NCBI GenBank assembly: GCA_019418195.1
Contig: DYCJ01000006.1
Coordinates: forward strand, 930 to 11,976
Source of the DNA: Clostridiales bacterium
Lineage (GTDB): Bacteria > Bacillota > Clostridia > Lachnospirales > Lachnospiraceae
Length of the DNA stretch: 11,047 nucleotides
Direction: 5' to 3'
Every line of letters starts with the position of its first letter. Position 1 is the first letter of the stretch. The notes beneath the pieces are model-generated. The model made no database searches. It was given only the letters and a program-made list of their open reading frames with translations, and had not been told where the DNA came from. Shown one piece after another: positions 3,650 through 8,988 of the stretch. The position numbers and the translations under genes were made by a program.

Positions 3650-4672
3650 TTACTTTTCCTCGGTGCTGGCTACAAGACGATCAAAATCGCTCTGATACAA
3701 ACGGTCTTGGATAACACGATATTGTTCAAATTCGCTTTCCGCAAAGGCTTTTGCGATTGCCGCAGTAACTTTCCCTTTATCCTGCAAAATTTCAGCATCG
3801 TTAAATTGCAGGAACGCATCTAACTTGGAAGCCCAGTCTGCCATTGTCATAGGGATATGTCGTCTGGCCTGCCTTGTGGCATAATCCAGATACATCGTGA
3901 CAATTTCATTTAACTCCTGCATTTCATCGGTGGATAAGTAATTTTTTGCGATAGATACATCAGATTTTACAATCTTGCCACCGGGAGCATTGCGCCAGGA
4001 TGTTAATCCCATGTGCTCTTTCGTGTGATCTGCCCTTGTTACAATAACCTCCGCAGCAGTGTTGCCATGAACGGCATAATACATCTTATTCTGTACTGTT
4101 GCAAAGAATTCTTTCGTAATTTGACTATCAAGGGAATAATCAACGGCAGTAGCATAAATGTCCGTGATTTTCTGATAGAAACGGCGCTCACTGGCCCGAA
4201 TTTCCTGTATTTCAGAAATCAGGTGGTCAAAATAGTCCTCATCAAAGATTTGACCATTAATCAGTCTGCTCTTGTCCAGAACATATCCTTGTTTAGCAAA
4301 AGTGTCCAGCACCTTTGTTGCCCACTGCCGGAACTGCGTTGCTCTGCCGGAGTTAACACGGTAACCAACAGCGATGATAGCGGATAATGAATAGAACTTA
4401 TATTGATAAGTTTTTCCGTTGTCAGCAACTTGTGCAAAATTTGCACAAGTTAAATCTTCAGATAATTCACCTCTTTCATAGATATTTTTGAGATGCTTTG
4501 TAACAACGCTTCTGTCCACATCGAAAAGCTGACTAATCGCTTTTTGTGTCAGCCATACATCATGATCCTGCACACGGACTTCAATCCCATCCTCGTGGGC
4601 ATCCATCGTGAACACAAGGAAATCTACGGTACTGTTTCGAATTTGAAATTTCCTGTTCTTATTTGCGGACAT
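3650..4672 (-). CDS. RhuM family protein (virulence RhuM-like)
   Basis: A 340-residue cytosolic protein of the RhuM family, named after a Salmonella SPI-3 gene and common on mobile elements and in defence-type gene clusters. Its biochemical role is not established. The N-terminal part (about 28-130) resembles a Bro-N-like or helix-turn-helix DNA-binding fold and contains VWLTQKAISQLFDVDRSVV, KHLKNIYERGEL and the family segment YSLSAIIAVGYRVNSGR. The central part has a helical stretch (about 150-195). Next come the conserved MYYAVHGNTAAEVI and RADHTKEHMGLTSW segments, and then YLSTDEMQELNEIVTMYLDYA. Length is normal and the frame intact. It starts at ATG 4670-4672 behind a modest GGTGAT. Its own promoter and apparently more AT-rich sequence set it apart from the Tad genes, suggesting separate acquisition. 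No restriction-modification or toxin partner is adjacent. Confidence 0.88.
   Translation of the reverse strand: MSANKNRKFQIRNSTVDFLVFTMDAHEDGIEVRVQDHDVWLTQKAISQLFDVDRSVVTKHLKNIYERGELSEDLTCANFAQVADNGKTYQYKFYSLSAIIAVGYRVNSGRATQFRQWATKVLDTFAKQGYVLDKSRLINGQIFDEDYFDHLISEIQEIRASERRFYQKITDIYATAVDYSLDSQITKEFFATVQNKMYYAVHGNTAAEVIVTRADHTKEHMGLTSWRNAPGGKIVKSDVSIAKNYLSTDEMQELNEIVTMYLDYATRQARRHIPMTMADWASKLDAFLQFNDAEILQDKGKVTAAIAKAFAESEFEQYRVIQDRLYQSDFDRLVASTEEK
4427..4451. repeat. Perfect 25-base palindrome inside RhuM
   Basis: AACTTGTGCAAA (4427-4438), a single central A, and TTTGCACAAGTT (4440-4451) are perfect inverted copies. They lie within the RhuM coding region at about residues 74-82, encoding LTCANFAQV. 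The symmetry could form a 12-bp hairpin or serve as a dimeric protein site. Confidence 0.75.
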
Positions 4673-6091: not shown

Positions 6092-6572
6092 TGATCATCC
6101 CTCCGATATATGCAGCCGTAAGAAACGGTACAAAAGGAAATGCTGATTTTCTGTGAAATTTCTTCCTGAGCAGCATGAAGATTGAAAAAAGGGCCGCCAT
6201 GGAAAATGCTGTGACAAGCAGGAAAAGAATATTCCAGAAGCCAAGGAAACCTCCCATGATCAGGATCAGTATACTGTCCCCGTATCCGAAAGCCTCTTCC
6301 GTTACTCTGCTGACGACCATGAATACAATCCCTACGCCGGCGCCTGCTGCCAGTAACATTACATGGATATTTCTCCCGCATAAAAATCCTGCAGTCAGGA
6401 TGATGAATCCGGACATCAGCGCCGCGAGACTGAGTTTTTTCCACTTTATATCCATAAGCATAAGAATGATCATATATACAGCAAATAACAGCTGGCACAG
6501 GGTCCACCTGTTTTCCATGATAAAGTCCATGATCATTTCGTTCATCCGCTGTGTCCCGAACACCTGGAACAT
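6078..6572 (-). CDS. Prepilin peptidase, TadV/CpaA type (A24 aspartic protease)
   Basis: A 164-residue polytopic membrane protease that would cleave the leaders of the Flp pilin and TadE-like pseudopilins at the cytoplasmic membrane face. The two catalytic aspartates are visible: Asp41 in LMDIKWKKLS, at the end of the first helix, and Asp99 in the GYGD motif (96-99). The late FPFVPFLTAAY segment (145-155) is also typical. It lacks the N-methyltransferase domain of PilD-type enzymes, as expected for the short TadV group. The ATG at 6570-6572 follows GGAGG-rich sequence, and the gene starts 31 bases inside the preceding TadE-like gene. Downstream it overlaps TadE by 14 bases. Confidence 0.92.
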   Translation of the reverse strand: MFQVFGTQRMNEMIMDFIMENRWTLCQLLFAVYMIILMLMDIKWKKLSLAALMSGFIILTAGFLCGRNIHVMLLAAGAGVGIVFMVVSRVTEEAFGYGDSILILIMGGFLGFWNILFLLVTAFSMAALFSIFMLLRKKFHRKSAFPFVPFLTAAYIGGMIIGAY

Positions 6573-7381
6573 CCTCCCACACCTCCTGTCTCTGATCTCT
6601 CAACTGCATGAATCGTACGTTTCAATCCGCTGCAATTTAATGAATTGTGATACTTTGTTCCGTTGTCTGTTATGTATACGCCTGTCATGGCCGGTCCGAT
6701 CACACACTTATCACAGGCGTGATACCTCCCTCCGATTTCATTTCTTATCCCGTCCAATTCCTCATACGGGACATATCGGATGGAAAGTCGAAGATAGGAG
6801 CAGTTATAATCATCATGATACACAGAACCGTTATCTGTCATATAGACGATCCCGGAATCCTCTCCGCTCATTCCGCCGTCCTCATATCCTCTCCAGGAAC
6901 TGAGCCTGAACGACTCTTCAAGTTCCGCTGAAGGACTGCCCATGACCGGCAGAGGTATCATGACCTTATAATTTACTGTAATATTCATCTCTCCCGTCAC
7001 AGGGGATACGTAAGACTTCCAGCAGGAGATTCCGGCACTTCCGTCTTTCAGGATACTCCTGCTGATCCTGTCTTCCCCGATAAGAGAGACAATATCTGAC
7101 TTCAATTTTACTGTATTGAGTACCGGGATGACTGCCGTATCTTCCGCGGCACTTTTTGCTGCATTGTGAGCAGCATTTGTAATACTGATCCTGATACTCT
7201 GTATCTCGATCAGCCAGATCAGACACAGCGCGGCAAACAGAAAAAGAGGTATGCCGAAAGAGGCTTCTATCGTAACGCTGCCGCTTTGTCTGAACAGATT
7301 TTTCTTTTCATTCCTCATCCCCGGTACAGATGCCCTTTCCGGTTTCATCAGGGTAATATCTTTATTCGTATGTATCGTCAT
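6542..7381 (-). CDS. TadE-like protein with two C-terminal Cys/His repeats
   Basis: Up to 279 residues. SGSVTIEASFGIPLFLFAAL (33-52) is a TadE-type pilin-like signal with a membrane helix to about 60. The following domain should be outside the membrane. The C-terminus carries a duplicated module: residues 179-226 begin VYMTDNGSVYHDDYNCSYL and end YHACDKC; residues 235-274 begin VYITDNGTKYHNSLNCSGL and end GGCSRC. Each has a His (189, 245), one Cys (194, 250) and a CxxC pair (223/226, 271/274), suggesting metal binding or disulfides. The start is uncertain: ATG 7381 has AAAGGA about 14 bases upstream, ATG 7348 has no clear site, and ATG 7318 gives the most typical TadE N-terminus but lies within an arm of a 25-bp inverted repeat. 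It overlaps the peptidase gene by 31 bases. Confidence 0.85.
   Translation of the reverse strand: MTIHTNKDITLMKPERASVPGMRNEKKNLFRQSGSVTIEASFGIPLFLFAALCLIWLIEIQSIRISITNAAHNAAKSAAEDTAVIPVLNTVKLKSDIVSLIGEDRISRSILKDGSAGISCWKSYVSPVTGEMNITVNYKVMIPLPVMGSPSAELEESFRLSSWRGYEDGGMSGEDSGIVYMTDNGSVYHDDYNCSYLRLSIRYVPYEELDGIRNEIGGRYHACDKCVIGPAMTGVYITDNGTKYHNSLNCSGLKRTIHAVERSETGGVGGCSRCSGHSG
7315..7339. repeat. Left arm of a 25-bp perfect inverted repeat
   Basis: The 25 bases here (minus-strand core GGGCATCTGTACCGGGG) recur exactly, in opposite orientation, at 7461-7485. This arm lies inside the TadE-like coding region, spanning codon 15 to the first base of codon 23, and includes the alternative start codon ATG at 7316-7318. 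The flanking bases on either side do not match. Confidence 0.9.
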
Positions 7382-7430
7382 CGCAGCCGATTTTTTCCTT
7401 TCGTATGGACATATATTTGATAGTTACATT

Positions 7431-7455
7431 GGAATTCGCATGAGGGAATGCGCAT
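7431..7455. repeat. Two 11-base near-identical direct repeats
   Basis: GGAATTCGCAT (7431-7441) and GGAATGCGCAT (7445-7455) differ at one base and are spaced 14 bases apart, centre to centre. They lie in the 110-base untranslated gap between the DUF5702 gene and the TadE-like gene, within the segment enclosed by the 25-bp inverted repeat. They may be paired protein sites or chance. Confidence 0.4.
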
Positions 7456-7460
7456 AGGAT

Positions 7461-7485
7461 GAAAGGGCATCTGTACCGGGGATGA
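7461..7485. repeat. Right arm of the 25-bp perfect inverted repeat
   Basis: Exact reverse complement of 7315-7339, separated from it by 121 bp. This arm begins six bases after the stop codon of the DUF5702 gene in the direction of transcription. In the operon mRNA the two arms could pair into a 25-bp stem around the leader and first 14 codons of the TadE-like gene. Confidence 0.9.
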
Positions 7486-7491
7486 TATTGG

Positions 7492-8988
7492 TCATTCATA
7501 TCCGAAATATACTGGAAATGTATACGTGATACCGCCTAATATCTCTGACGTATTCTTCACCTCTATTTTTGTAATACACTGGTCTGTTCTGAACCAGTCC
7601 ATACCATATTCCATCTTTATATTCTCTTCGATCCGGTCCAGTACACGCATATTTATGTCATCCGGATCTTTCAGGAAGAGGAACATTCTCAGATAATCTT
7701 TGTATGTGATCCCGCCGGGTATGTCAGAGCCGTCAATCTGCTCTGTTCCGCTTCCCAGCGTCAGAAGAGATGAAAGAGGAAGCTGCCATGTATCGGAACT
7801 TTTTATAAGAGCCGTCCTGTTACCGGAAAGCAATGTCCGGATATCGACTACACTTTCGCCTGCAGCCCATGCCAGAAGGATCAGCTGTTTCAGTACCTCC
7901 GCTGCTTCCGGAATGAGAAGAACTGTTGTCACGGCAACAGCAAGAGCTGTTACTTCTGACTGCTTTGCCGAGTCTCCCATGAGATAGACGTAATTCAATG
8001 CCATGCGCACCAGAAATAATTTCATCAGGAATGATTCCAGATTTTCTTTATCAGAAGACTTCCCCTCGAGTATATATTCCGCCTCATATGCAAGAGAGCG
8101 ATTTCCTGTTTCTTTGTTTTCTCCCGTACTTACACTTTGACCATCATCCGGCACCGCACTGGAAAAGTTTTTCAGCACATATTCGTTAAACAGAAGCTTT
8201 TCCTCCGGTCCGTTCGTTCCCTGCCTGACCGGAAATGTTCCTCTTCCTGTATTCAGACTCCTGGCAGAAGGCTGTGTATCAAGTTCTATCGCCAGACCGG
8301 AAAGCTCCATATCTTTCGGCATTACGACAGAGAGGATACCTGACTTTTCAATCTGATCGATACATGTAAACGGACCTCCTTCCGTCAGATTTTCCATTCC
8401 TGTAGAATCCGGCGAGATCACATCTGTTCCCGGATCTGCGAAGTCCGTATCCTGATTTTCCTGCGTATCAGCTGCGCCGTCTTCCCCTGGGAACTGTGCA
8501 CTTTCCATCAGGTCATTCACTTCATCGAGGATGTTTCCTTCTGTTTCTTCCATTTCTTCTCCCTGTATTGCCTGCTCCTCCCACCGGGAAGTAAGGCCGG
8601 TAAAATCGCGGATGAGTGAAAGCCCATATCTCTCCTCCATATACTGAAGTACCTGTTCGCGGAAGGCCTGTCCGTTTAAATCTGTCAGATACTGGATTCC
8701 CGTAATCTCCTGTTCCATACCAGCAGTGCCATAATAGTGCATCCTTCCGATCAGCCTTTCATCGCTGTATTCTCCCGTCCCGTAACTTCCCTCTATGGCA
8801 AATACATGATAGTCCTCCAGAAGCTTTCTGTGGTATTCTCCAAACACCGAGAACGCCGCCCTGTCTGCCGCGAGACGGTTCAGATTCTTCGTCGTATGTA
8901 TGACAGAAACTTCAAGAATCCCCAGCACAAAAGACACCATAAGTATAAAAACGATACTCAGGAATGCCGTGATCTCCGCTTTCTTCAT
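7492..8988 (-). CDS. DUF5702 domain protein, Tad-locus pseudopilin-like membrane protein
   Basis: A 498-residue protein resembling DUF5702 proteins, which occur in Lachnospiraceae-type Tad loci and have no assigned function. Residues 2-30 (KKAEITAFLSIVFILMVSFV) form a pilin-like N-terminal helix; most of the remainder should face outward. Near the N-terminus the family pattern NRLAADRAAFSVFGEYHRKLLEDYHVFAI is seen in pieces. An acidic low-complexity stretch spans about 142-200. Two hydrophobic patches near 348-382 may be buried helices rather than true membrane spans. The C-terminus is ITYTFPVYFGYE. ATG at 8986-8988 follows GGGGAT by six bases and lies two bases after the pilin stop, implying coupling. 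A minor pilin or surface-subunit role, TadG-like by position, is inferred. Confidence 0.8.
   Translation of the reverse strand: MKKAEITAFLSIVFILMVSFVLGILEVSVIHTTKNLNRLAADRAAFSVFGEYHRKLLEDYHVFAIEGSYGTGEYSDERLIGRMHYYGTAGMEQEITGIQYLTDLNGQAFREQVLQYMEERYGLSLIRDFTGLTSRWEEQAIQGEEMEETEGNILDEVNDLMESAQFPGEDGAADTQENQDTDFADPGTDVISPDSTGMENLTEGGPFTCIDQIEKSGILSVVMPKDMELSGLAIELDTQPSARSLNTGRGTFPVRQGTNGPEEKLLFNEYVLKNFSSAVPDDGQSVSTGENKETGNRSLAYEAEYILEGKSSDKENLESFLMKLFLVRMALNYVYLMGDSAKQSEVTALAVAVTTVLLIPEAAEVLKQLILLAWAAGESVVDIRTLLSGNRTALIKSSDTWQLPLSSLLTLGSGTEQIDGSDIPGGITYKDYLRMFLFLKDPDDINMRVLDRIEENIKMEYGMDWFRTDQCITKIEVKNTSEILGGITYTFPVYFGYE

What the first reader, a model, noticed from the sequence alone, without database searches (positions are those of the whole stretch)
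7315..7485. Perfect 25-bp inverted repeat enclosing the start of a Tad-operon gene: possible DNA switch or RNA hairpin
Seen directly: 7315-7339 and 7461-7485 are exact inverted copies with 121 bp between them. The enclosed segment holds the annotated start (7381), its ribosome site and the second ATG (7348) of the larger TadE-like gene. The left arm is coding sequence; the right arm starts six bases after the preceding stop codon. Arm length and spacing resemble known invertible switches in Clostridia, such as those of C. difficile surface genes. If the segment flipped, the gene would lose its first 14 codons; the new in-frame upstream sequence has a TAG at original 7455-7457, leaving only ATG 7318 as a start. 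Alternatively, a 25-bp mRNA stem would hide ATG 7318, and ribosomes ending the DUF5702 gene would melt one arm. A switch is inference; no recombinase is in view.
Basis: partly seen in the sequence, partly recalled or inferred. Interest (0 to 1): 0.75.

Follow-up and report, generated by a model that had tools for sequence, protein, structure and literature searches.

The report
Conserved mRNA helix before pilus gene
The two mirror-image DNA stretches are probably not a flip switch: they let the messenger RNA fold into a long double helix around the start of a pilus gene, a fold kept in most of the related gut bacteria examined although its letters keep changing, which points to hidden control of how much pilus protein is made.

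Summary
The perfect 25-bp inverted repeat is real and acts in the mRNA. In genus Mediterraneibacter, 42 distinct loci carry a 24-35 bp helix at the same DUF5702/TadE-like junction. Of 109 loci from other genera of the family, 95 carry a helix of 20-42 positions there with different letters, against 1 of 545 shuffles. Where the arms disagree, the mismatch is G.U in the mRNA sense: 25 G.U to 2 A.C in the genus, 157 to 17 outside it, although background substitutions would favour A.C. DNA recombination sites predict no such bias, and 0 of 42 genus loops are flipped. In 60 of the 95, the best-supported start of the TadE-like gene, with its Shine-Dalgarno site, lies in the 5' arm; the 3' arm lies about 41 codons into that gene. 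In the window's clade the start has moved into the loop, yet the helix stays. Most likely role: translational control of the minor-pilin gene, tied to ribosomes finishing DUF5702; RNase III processing is the main rival. 0 of 19 loci from other families of the order have it. Rfam gave no match in the window or 20 family loci.

The parts
7461..7485 (-). 5' arm of the mRNA helix (P1), 6 nt after the DUF5702 stop
   Evidence: pairing conserved
7315..7339 (-). 3' arm of the helix, codons 15-23 of the TadE-like reading frame (codes E-R-A-S-V-P-G-M and one more base), upstream of the class III prepilin-type motif SG/SVTIEA (motif name recalled)
7340..7460 (-). loop closed by P1; holds the ribosome site and start predicted for this clade
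7437..7452 (-). small stem-loop P2 with loop UCCCUC, weaker covariation support
   Evidence: (76.9% of cells paired; changes on both sides in 5 of 6 pairs); RNAalifold did not include it
7396..7402 (-). Shine-Dalgarno-like GAAAGGA in the loop, 14 nt before the start
   Evidence: AAAGGA is in the loop of all 42 genus loci
7379..7381 (-). predicted start codon of the TadE-like gene (loop start)
7468..7470 (-). ATG inside the 5' arm: inferred relic of the start codon that other genera use; ATG in 34 of 40 aligned genus loci, GTG in 3, ATA in 2, GTA in 1
   Evidence: for the counts; position matches in-frame arm starts; relic status is inference
7378..7470 (-). 30-codon reading frame from that ATG, ending in TGA that overlaps the loop start (ATGA); its length varies among relatives, probably incidental
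6542..7381 (-). TadE-like minor pilin gene that the helix precedes and enters (no Pfam match; named from position and motif)
7492..8988 (-). upstream DUF5702 gene (PF18960)

Best explanation
The inverted repeat encodes a long-range double helix in the polycistronic Tad pilus mRNA. Shown by comparison: pairing on the sense RNA strand is under selection in Mediterraneibacter and in most of the other Lachnospiraceae genera examined. Shown by anatomy: in the commonest form the 5' arm starts a few nucleotides after the DUF5702 stop and contains the best-supported Shine-Dalgarno site and start codon of the TadE-like gene, while the 3' arm lies about 41 codons into the same gene and is complementary to them, written into a lengthened prepilin leader. 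Inferred: the helix keeps the start closed; a ribosome terminating on DUF5702 covers or melts the 5' arm, so translation of the minor pilin depends on translation of its upstream partner, and a ribosome passing the 3' arm holds the helix open for the next. In the window's clade a ribosome site and start lie inside the loop. The helix is still selected there and still sits between the DUF5702 stop and codons 15-23 of the TadE-like gene, but how it acts there is less clear: access, pausing or mRNA fate rather than direct masking.
For: Sense-strand mismatches G.U to A.C: 25:2 (1 other) in 42 genus loci and 157:17 (34 others) in 89 family loci, while differences in flanking sequence of 13 hand-picked pairs run the other way, C/T 1172 to A/G 1937. 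P1: 99.4% of cells paired, 17 of 27 pairs changed on both sides; for P1 and P2 together 0 of 500 shuffles reach any measure, and slid versions pair at 37-49%. RNAalifold finds P1 unaided: 26 pairs, 16 with changes on both sides. Helix score >=18 in 95 of 109 family loci against 1 of 545 shuffles and 1 of 298 other windows; that one is the strong helix of L121, whose reading frame had been misassigned. Own arms score 18.4 on average, arms swapped between genera 0.28 (2000 swaps, highest 20). Best-supported start in the 5' arm in 60 of 95 loci; mean chance that Shine-Dalgarno to start is unpaired is 0.13 with the 3' arm and 0.39 without, rising in 58 of 60. Distance from stop to arm: median 9 nt, n=132.
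Against: In loop-start loci, the window's kind, the helix does not mask the start: 0.53 unpaired with the 3' arm, 0.45 without (n=52), so masking alone cannot explain retention there. A perfect 25-bp helix may be too stable for a terminating ribosome to open in time. The review seen in passages (PMC12548453) reports that predicted structure just after an upstream stop correlated with weaker coupling. 14 of 109 family loci fell below the cut-off (L121 misassigned; L195 and L125 just under it). Of 15 genus genomes without a pattern pair, 10 have no DUF5702 match, 2 have a helix with other letters and 3 have DUF5702 without one. In 35 of the 95 loci no arm start was the best-supported one. No expression data were available.
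Confidence: 0.6

Rival explanations
1. RNase III processing site: the long helix is cut, separating the upstream pilin and DUF5702 message from the minor-pilin genes and silencing downstream mRNAs that ribosomes do not hold open. This would set unequal amounts of subunits.
For: Helix of 24-35 bp in the genus and 20-42 positions in the family, which fits a double-strand cutter (requirement of about two turns recalled). It would serve both start layouts, in the arm or in the loop. The 5' arm begins a median of 9 nt after the upstream stop.
Against: Cutting would remove the start or first codons of the TadE-like gene in both layouts; a cutter does not explain why the 5' arm so often holds the Shine-Dalgarno site and start (60 of 95). 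No cleavage data.
Confidence: 0.22
2. Invertible DNA switch (inverton): a recombinase flips 7340-7460 and turns the gene on and off.
Against: G.U bias in the sense strand; turnover of arm letters between genera; 0 of 42 genus loops flipped; no recombinase among the ten window proteins scanned; no other inverted repeat of comparable strength within 420 nt spacing in 413 kb of the fetched loci.
Confidence: 0.03
3. mRNA stability or insulation helix: it shields the upstream pilin message from 3' decay, or pauses ribosomes or RNA polymerase, with no direct role in start-site access.
For: Fits the loop-start loci, where the start is open.
Against: Does not explain the Shine-Dalgarno site and start lying in the 5' arm in 60 of 95 loci.
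Confidence: 0.12
4. Readthrough or bypass element that fuses DUF5702 to the TadE-like protein.
For: The helix begins a median of 9 nt after the stop, a spacing recalled for readthrough stimulators. In the genus 18 of 37 loci are in register.
Against: Outside the genus the two frames stand in no fixed relation: 23, 28 and 28 loci in the three registers; in both sets together only 18 of 116 are in register and open.
Confidence: 0.01

Closest known systems
Translational coupling by RNA unfolding (f1 genes VII/IX, MS2 coat/lysis, E. coli rpmI-rplT; named in review PMC12548453, passages seen)
   Same: Neighbouring genes on one strand; structure at the downstream ribosome site that upstream translation is thought to open.
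   Different: Here the partner strand lies about 41 codons downstream inside the regulated gene, the helix is long and nearly perfect, it is kept in most genera examined of a bacterial family while its sequence turns over, and in the window's clade the start lies outside the helix.
DNA invertons
   Same: Inverted repeats around a start region.
   Different: One orientation in all 42 genus loci, letters not conserved as a recombination site, G.U bias specific to the RNA sense strand.
RNase III processing hairpins in operons (recalled)
   Same: Long, nearly perfect double-stranded RNA between genes.
   Different: One arm is coding sequence; cleavage untested.

Membership tests
Translationally coupled gene pair (RNA-unfolding type) | Downstream ribosome site and start lie in inhibitory structure | tested here: inconclusive
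   Met in 60 of 95 family loci; not met in the window and its genus, where the supported start is in the loop in 38 of 42 loci
Translationally coupled gene pair (RNA-unfolding type) | Upstream gene ends next to the structure | tested here: met
   Median 9 nt from stop to 5' arm, 111 of 132 loci within -15 to 30
Translationally coupled gene pair (RNA-unfolding type) | Downstream output depends on upstream translation | not testable with these tools
   Needs reporters
Invertible DNA switch | Inverted repeats flank the segment | tested here: met
Invertible DNA switch | Both orientations occur | tested here: not met
   0 of 42 genus loci flipped, orientation taken from the flanking reading frames; assemblies only, no read data
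Invertible DNA switch | Arms conserved as a recombinase site | tested here: not met
   Letters turn over between genera with pairing kept, although a core around GATGCCCTTTC recurs
Invertible DNA switch | Cognate recombinase | tested here: inconclusive
   None among ten window proteins; the rest of the genome was not searched for one
RNase III processing site | Helix of about 22 bp or more | tested here: met
   25 bp in the window; the threshold is recalled
RNase III processing site | Cleavage in cells | not testable with these tools
   no RNA data
Known Rfam family | Match at the gathering score | tested here: not met
   0 matches in the window and in 20 family loci; one weak hit far below threshold near the junction
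Intrinsic terminator | Short hairpin followed by a U run | tested here: not met
   121-nt loop and no U run after the 3' arm (sequence)

The most novel reading that the evidence does not exclude
A family-wide ribosome-traffic latch: each Tad pilus mRNA is licensed for minor-pilin synthesis only if a ribosome finishing DUF5702 reaches the junction before the 3' arm closes; elongating ribosomes then hold the helix open, and a gap in traffic locks it shut, perhaps irreversibly by RNase III. The strand that closes the Shine-Dalgarno site is written into a lengthened prepilin leader peptide, so protein and RNA codes constrain each other.
Probability: 0.3. Interest if true: 0.78.

Novelty: new variant of a known kind. 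Interest (0 to 1): 0.62.

Why it matters
It is a conserved long-range mRNA helix, unmatched in Rfam in the stretches tested, at the same gene junction in 95 of 109 other-genus loci examined. It offers about a hundred natural variants in which sequence has changed and pairing has not, in two layouts (start in the arm, start in the loop), so the question of how an operon sets unequal subunit amounts can be tested directly. It also warns that some perfect inverted repeats that look like phase switches are RNA structures, and gives a simple sense-strand G.U test to tell them apart.

Tried and rejected
DNA switch: rejected. Arms as a repeated site elsewhere in the genome: a close facing pair was found at one place in 40 of 58 genus genomes; other hits were single, mostly with two mismatches, a few with one, and two further exact ones in G062; reversed-pattern controls gave 7 hits in 6 genomes. 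Readthrough or fusion: rejected. A conserved small peptide from the 5'-arm ATG: rejected as the common function, since its length varies and 3 of 40 aligned loci have ATA or GTA there. Mutational strand bias as the cause of the G.U excess: rejected. Cruciform DNA: the strand also folds with DNA parameters, which does not discriminate; the G.U bias does. Papers: DUF5702 returns 0 papers; the listings (translational coupling, Tad pili in Lachnospiraceae, invertons, TadE and mRNA structure, structured RNA, RNase III) showed nothing on this element in the titles and abstract starts listed, which are capped lists. Only passages of PMC12548453 and a term search without hits in PMC11892184 were read.

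Rows dropped or not reached: 109 of the 143 non-genus genomes with a DUF5702 match were examined; the other 34, G100 and lower-scoring ones, were not fetched. Alignment A1 holds 40 of the 42 genus loci; L024 and L026 were left out by hand because of long loops. The Watson-Crick-only count kept 131 of 137 loci with helix score >=18. The tree used 8 hand-picked genus loci and all 109 family loci; its bootstrap had not settled and its root is a midpoint. Outside the family, 19 of the 33 genomes with a match had loci to examine. The strand of locus L087 was first chosen by helix score; its flanking DUF5702 reading frame agrees. The counts printed at the end (family G.U 341, A.C 26) come from a score that favours G.U and were not used as evidence of bias. 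The helix score also allows G.U, in data and controls alike. The output was cut; its counts were remade by another rule.

Full report
What was checked. The inverted repeat is exactly as described: 25 of 25 bases, 121 bp apart, the longest perfect one listed for the window. A dinucleotide-shuffle control for the arm core gives 0 of 200. The window holds a Tad (Flp) pilus operon on the minus strand: two T2SSF proteins, Flp1-like pilin, DUF5702, the TadE-like gene, prepilin peptidase, TadE, DUF6382. The window's own assembly is not held; the nearest held genome matches the junction at 99%. 22 named records carry the same exact facing arm core; most are titled Mediterraneibacter, several from chickens.

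It is conserved in the genus. The junction was found by DNA similarity in 27 of 61 genomes, all 27 among the 37 of the genus, and a close facing arm pair in 40 of 58 genus genomes by pattern. Three more with diverged arms (G019, G033, G036) come. These 43 genomes give 42 distinct loci with a 24-35 bp helix. Of the other 15 genus genomes, 10 have no DUF5702 match, some being incomplete; G012 and G002 have a helix with other letters (scores 26.7 and 33.5); G069, G018 and G068 have DUF5702 but no helix at the cut-off. In 33 of the 42 loci the pilin-type motif was found after the 3' arm, which codes E-R-A-S or close variants in most. RNAalifold recovers the helix from the alignment unaided, with changes on both sides at 16 of 26 pairs. 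Counted directly, 17 of 27 P1 pairs have changes on both sides and 99.4% of P1 cells are paired; for P1 and P2 together 0 of 500 shuffles reach any measure. A small stem-loop in the loop, with a conserved UCCCUC, has weaker support: 76.9% of cells paired, changes on both sides in 5 of 6 pairs, and RNAalifold did not include it.

It is conserved in the family although the sequence is not. DUF5702 was found in 144 of 150 family genomes, each of a different genus. The junctions of 109 of the 143 non-genus ones were examined: 29 returned and 80 fetched; the 34 not fetched were mostly the lower-scoring matches. In 95 of 109 a helix scores at least 18; the same score is reached by 1 of 545 shuffles and 1 of 298 other windows of the same loci, and that one window is the strong helix of L121, whose reading frame had been misassigned. 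Two more, L195 and L125, fall just below the cut-off with the same kind of arms. With a stricter Watson-Crick-only score of 16, 67 of 110 loci pass, G001 included. Arms paired within a locus score 18.4 on average, arms swapped between genera 0.28. No other inverted repeat of Watson-Crick score 18 within 420 nt occurs in 413 kb of these loci. Outside the family, 0 of 19 loci of other families in the same order reach 18 (best 13.8). There a TadE-type motif was found after the DUF5702 stop in 15 of 19, within 6 codons in 8 of those. Among the 11 family loci of the same search, 8 reach 18; L210, L217 and L220 do not, and L217 has a short leader. So the helix, and often the lengthened leader that carries one arm of it, look like a feature of this family.

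RNA, not DNA. If the arms were DNA recombination sites, a one-base disagreement would be as likely to read A.C as G.U on the coding strand. It reads G.U 25 times and A.C 2 times in the genus, 157 and 17 times in the family, with 1 and 34 other mismatches (helices found with all mismatches penalised equally). A strand bias in mutation cannot explain this: in flanks of 13 hand-picked pairs, A/G differences (1937) outnumber C/T differences (1172), which would favour A.C. Also, all 42 genus loops have the ribosome site on the same strand, with orientation set by the flanking reading frames.

What the helix covers. In 60 of the 95 loci the best-supported in-frame start, by a Shine-Dalgarno rule, is inside the 5' arm, with sites such as AAGGAGGTGA before it, and the 3' arm lies a median of 41.5 codons downstream. 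In the other 35, 14 have it in the loop, 6 elsewhere, 12 have none by this rule and 3 lack a usable frame. For the 60, the stretch from Shine-Dalgarno to start is unpaired with probability 0.13 on average with the 3' arm and 0.39 without. The 5' arm begins a median of 9 nt after the upstream stop. This is the layout of a start that is shut until a ribosome arrives from the upstream gene; that step is inferred, on the RNA-unfolding model of coupling described in PMC12548453 (passages).

The window's own clade differs. In 38 of 42 genus loci and 14 of 95 family loci the supported start lies in the loop, and there the helix does not close it: 0.53 unpaired with the 3' arm, 0.45 without, lower without it in 42 of 52. 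On a DUF5702 tree, 19 of the 21 loop-start rows fall in one well-supported group of 25 rows that also holds four arm-start rows (midpoint root). The arm-start layout is therefore probably older, and the conserved ATGCCCTTTC in the window's 5' arm (ATG at 7470-7468; exact in 28 of 40 aligned loci, ATG in 34) is probably the fossil of the older start codon. Pairing is still selected in this clade, so the helix has a use there that start masking does not explain. This is the main open point, and why RNase III processing and mRNA-stability roles are kept as rivals.

What is known. Rfam has no match in the window or in 20 family loci at the curated thresholds, and only a weak hit below threshold near the junction. 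No paper in the searched library mentions DUF5702, and the other listings showed nothing on this element. The principle, structure at a downstream start opened by upstream translation, is known. The form is new to me: a long, nearly perfect helix whose second strand is written into the leader of the regulated gene, kept across a family while its letters change.

Verdict. Observation confirmed; DNA switch not supported; RNA helix supported strongly; translational control is the most likely role (0.6), RNase III processing second (0.22).

Noticed in passing
loops of arm-start loci, e.g. L155, L165, L168, L177, L180, L187, L191: Many arm-start leaders share a short motif L-Q-V/A followed by R or P (e.g. 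TLQVRIP) in the loop, a possible second conserved element of leader or RNA.
   Followed up: no
window 7378-7470 (-): A 30-codon reading frame from the 5'-arm ATG ends in TGA that overlaps the TadE-like start (ATGA); in relatives it ends at other places, so it looks incidental, but it could add reinitiation in this species.
   Followed up: partly
window 6542-7381 (-) and arm-start loci: Starts of TadE-like genes in this family are easy to misannotate; in many genera the likely start lies in the 5' arm, far upstream of the pilin-type motif.
   Followed up: partly
window 3650-4672 (-): A RhuM-family gene (PF13310) lies between the Tad operon and a rhomboid gene; whether it is a recent insertion was not checked.
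   Followed up: no
L121: DUF5702 in this genus was reported with one in-frame TAG by the search; a strong helix lies elsewhere in the locus than the script first looked.
   Followed up: partly
G062 (L088, L089): This genus genome has exact arm-core matches on three contigs (C28, C54, C75), two of them close to contig ends, so it may hold a second junction broken between contigs.
   Followed up: no
L243 (G018), L244 and L245 (G068): Two genus genomes carry a much longer DUF5702 protein (open frames of 898 and 1245 residues) without the helix, perhaps a different Tad cluster.
   Followed up: no
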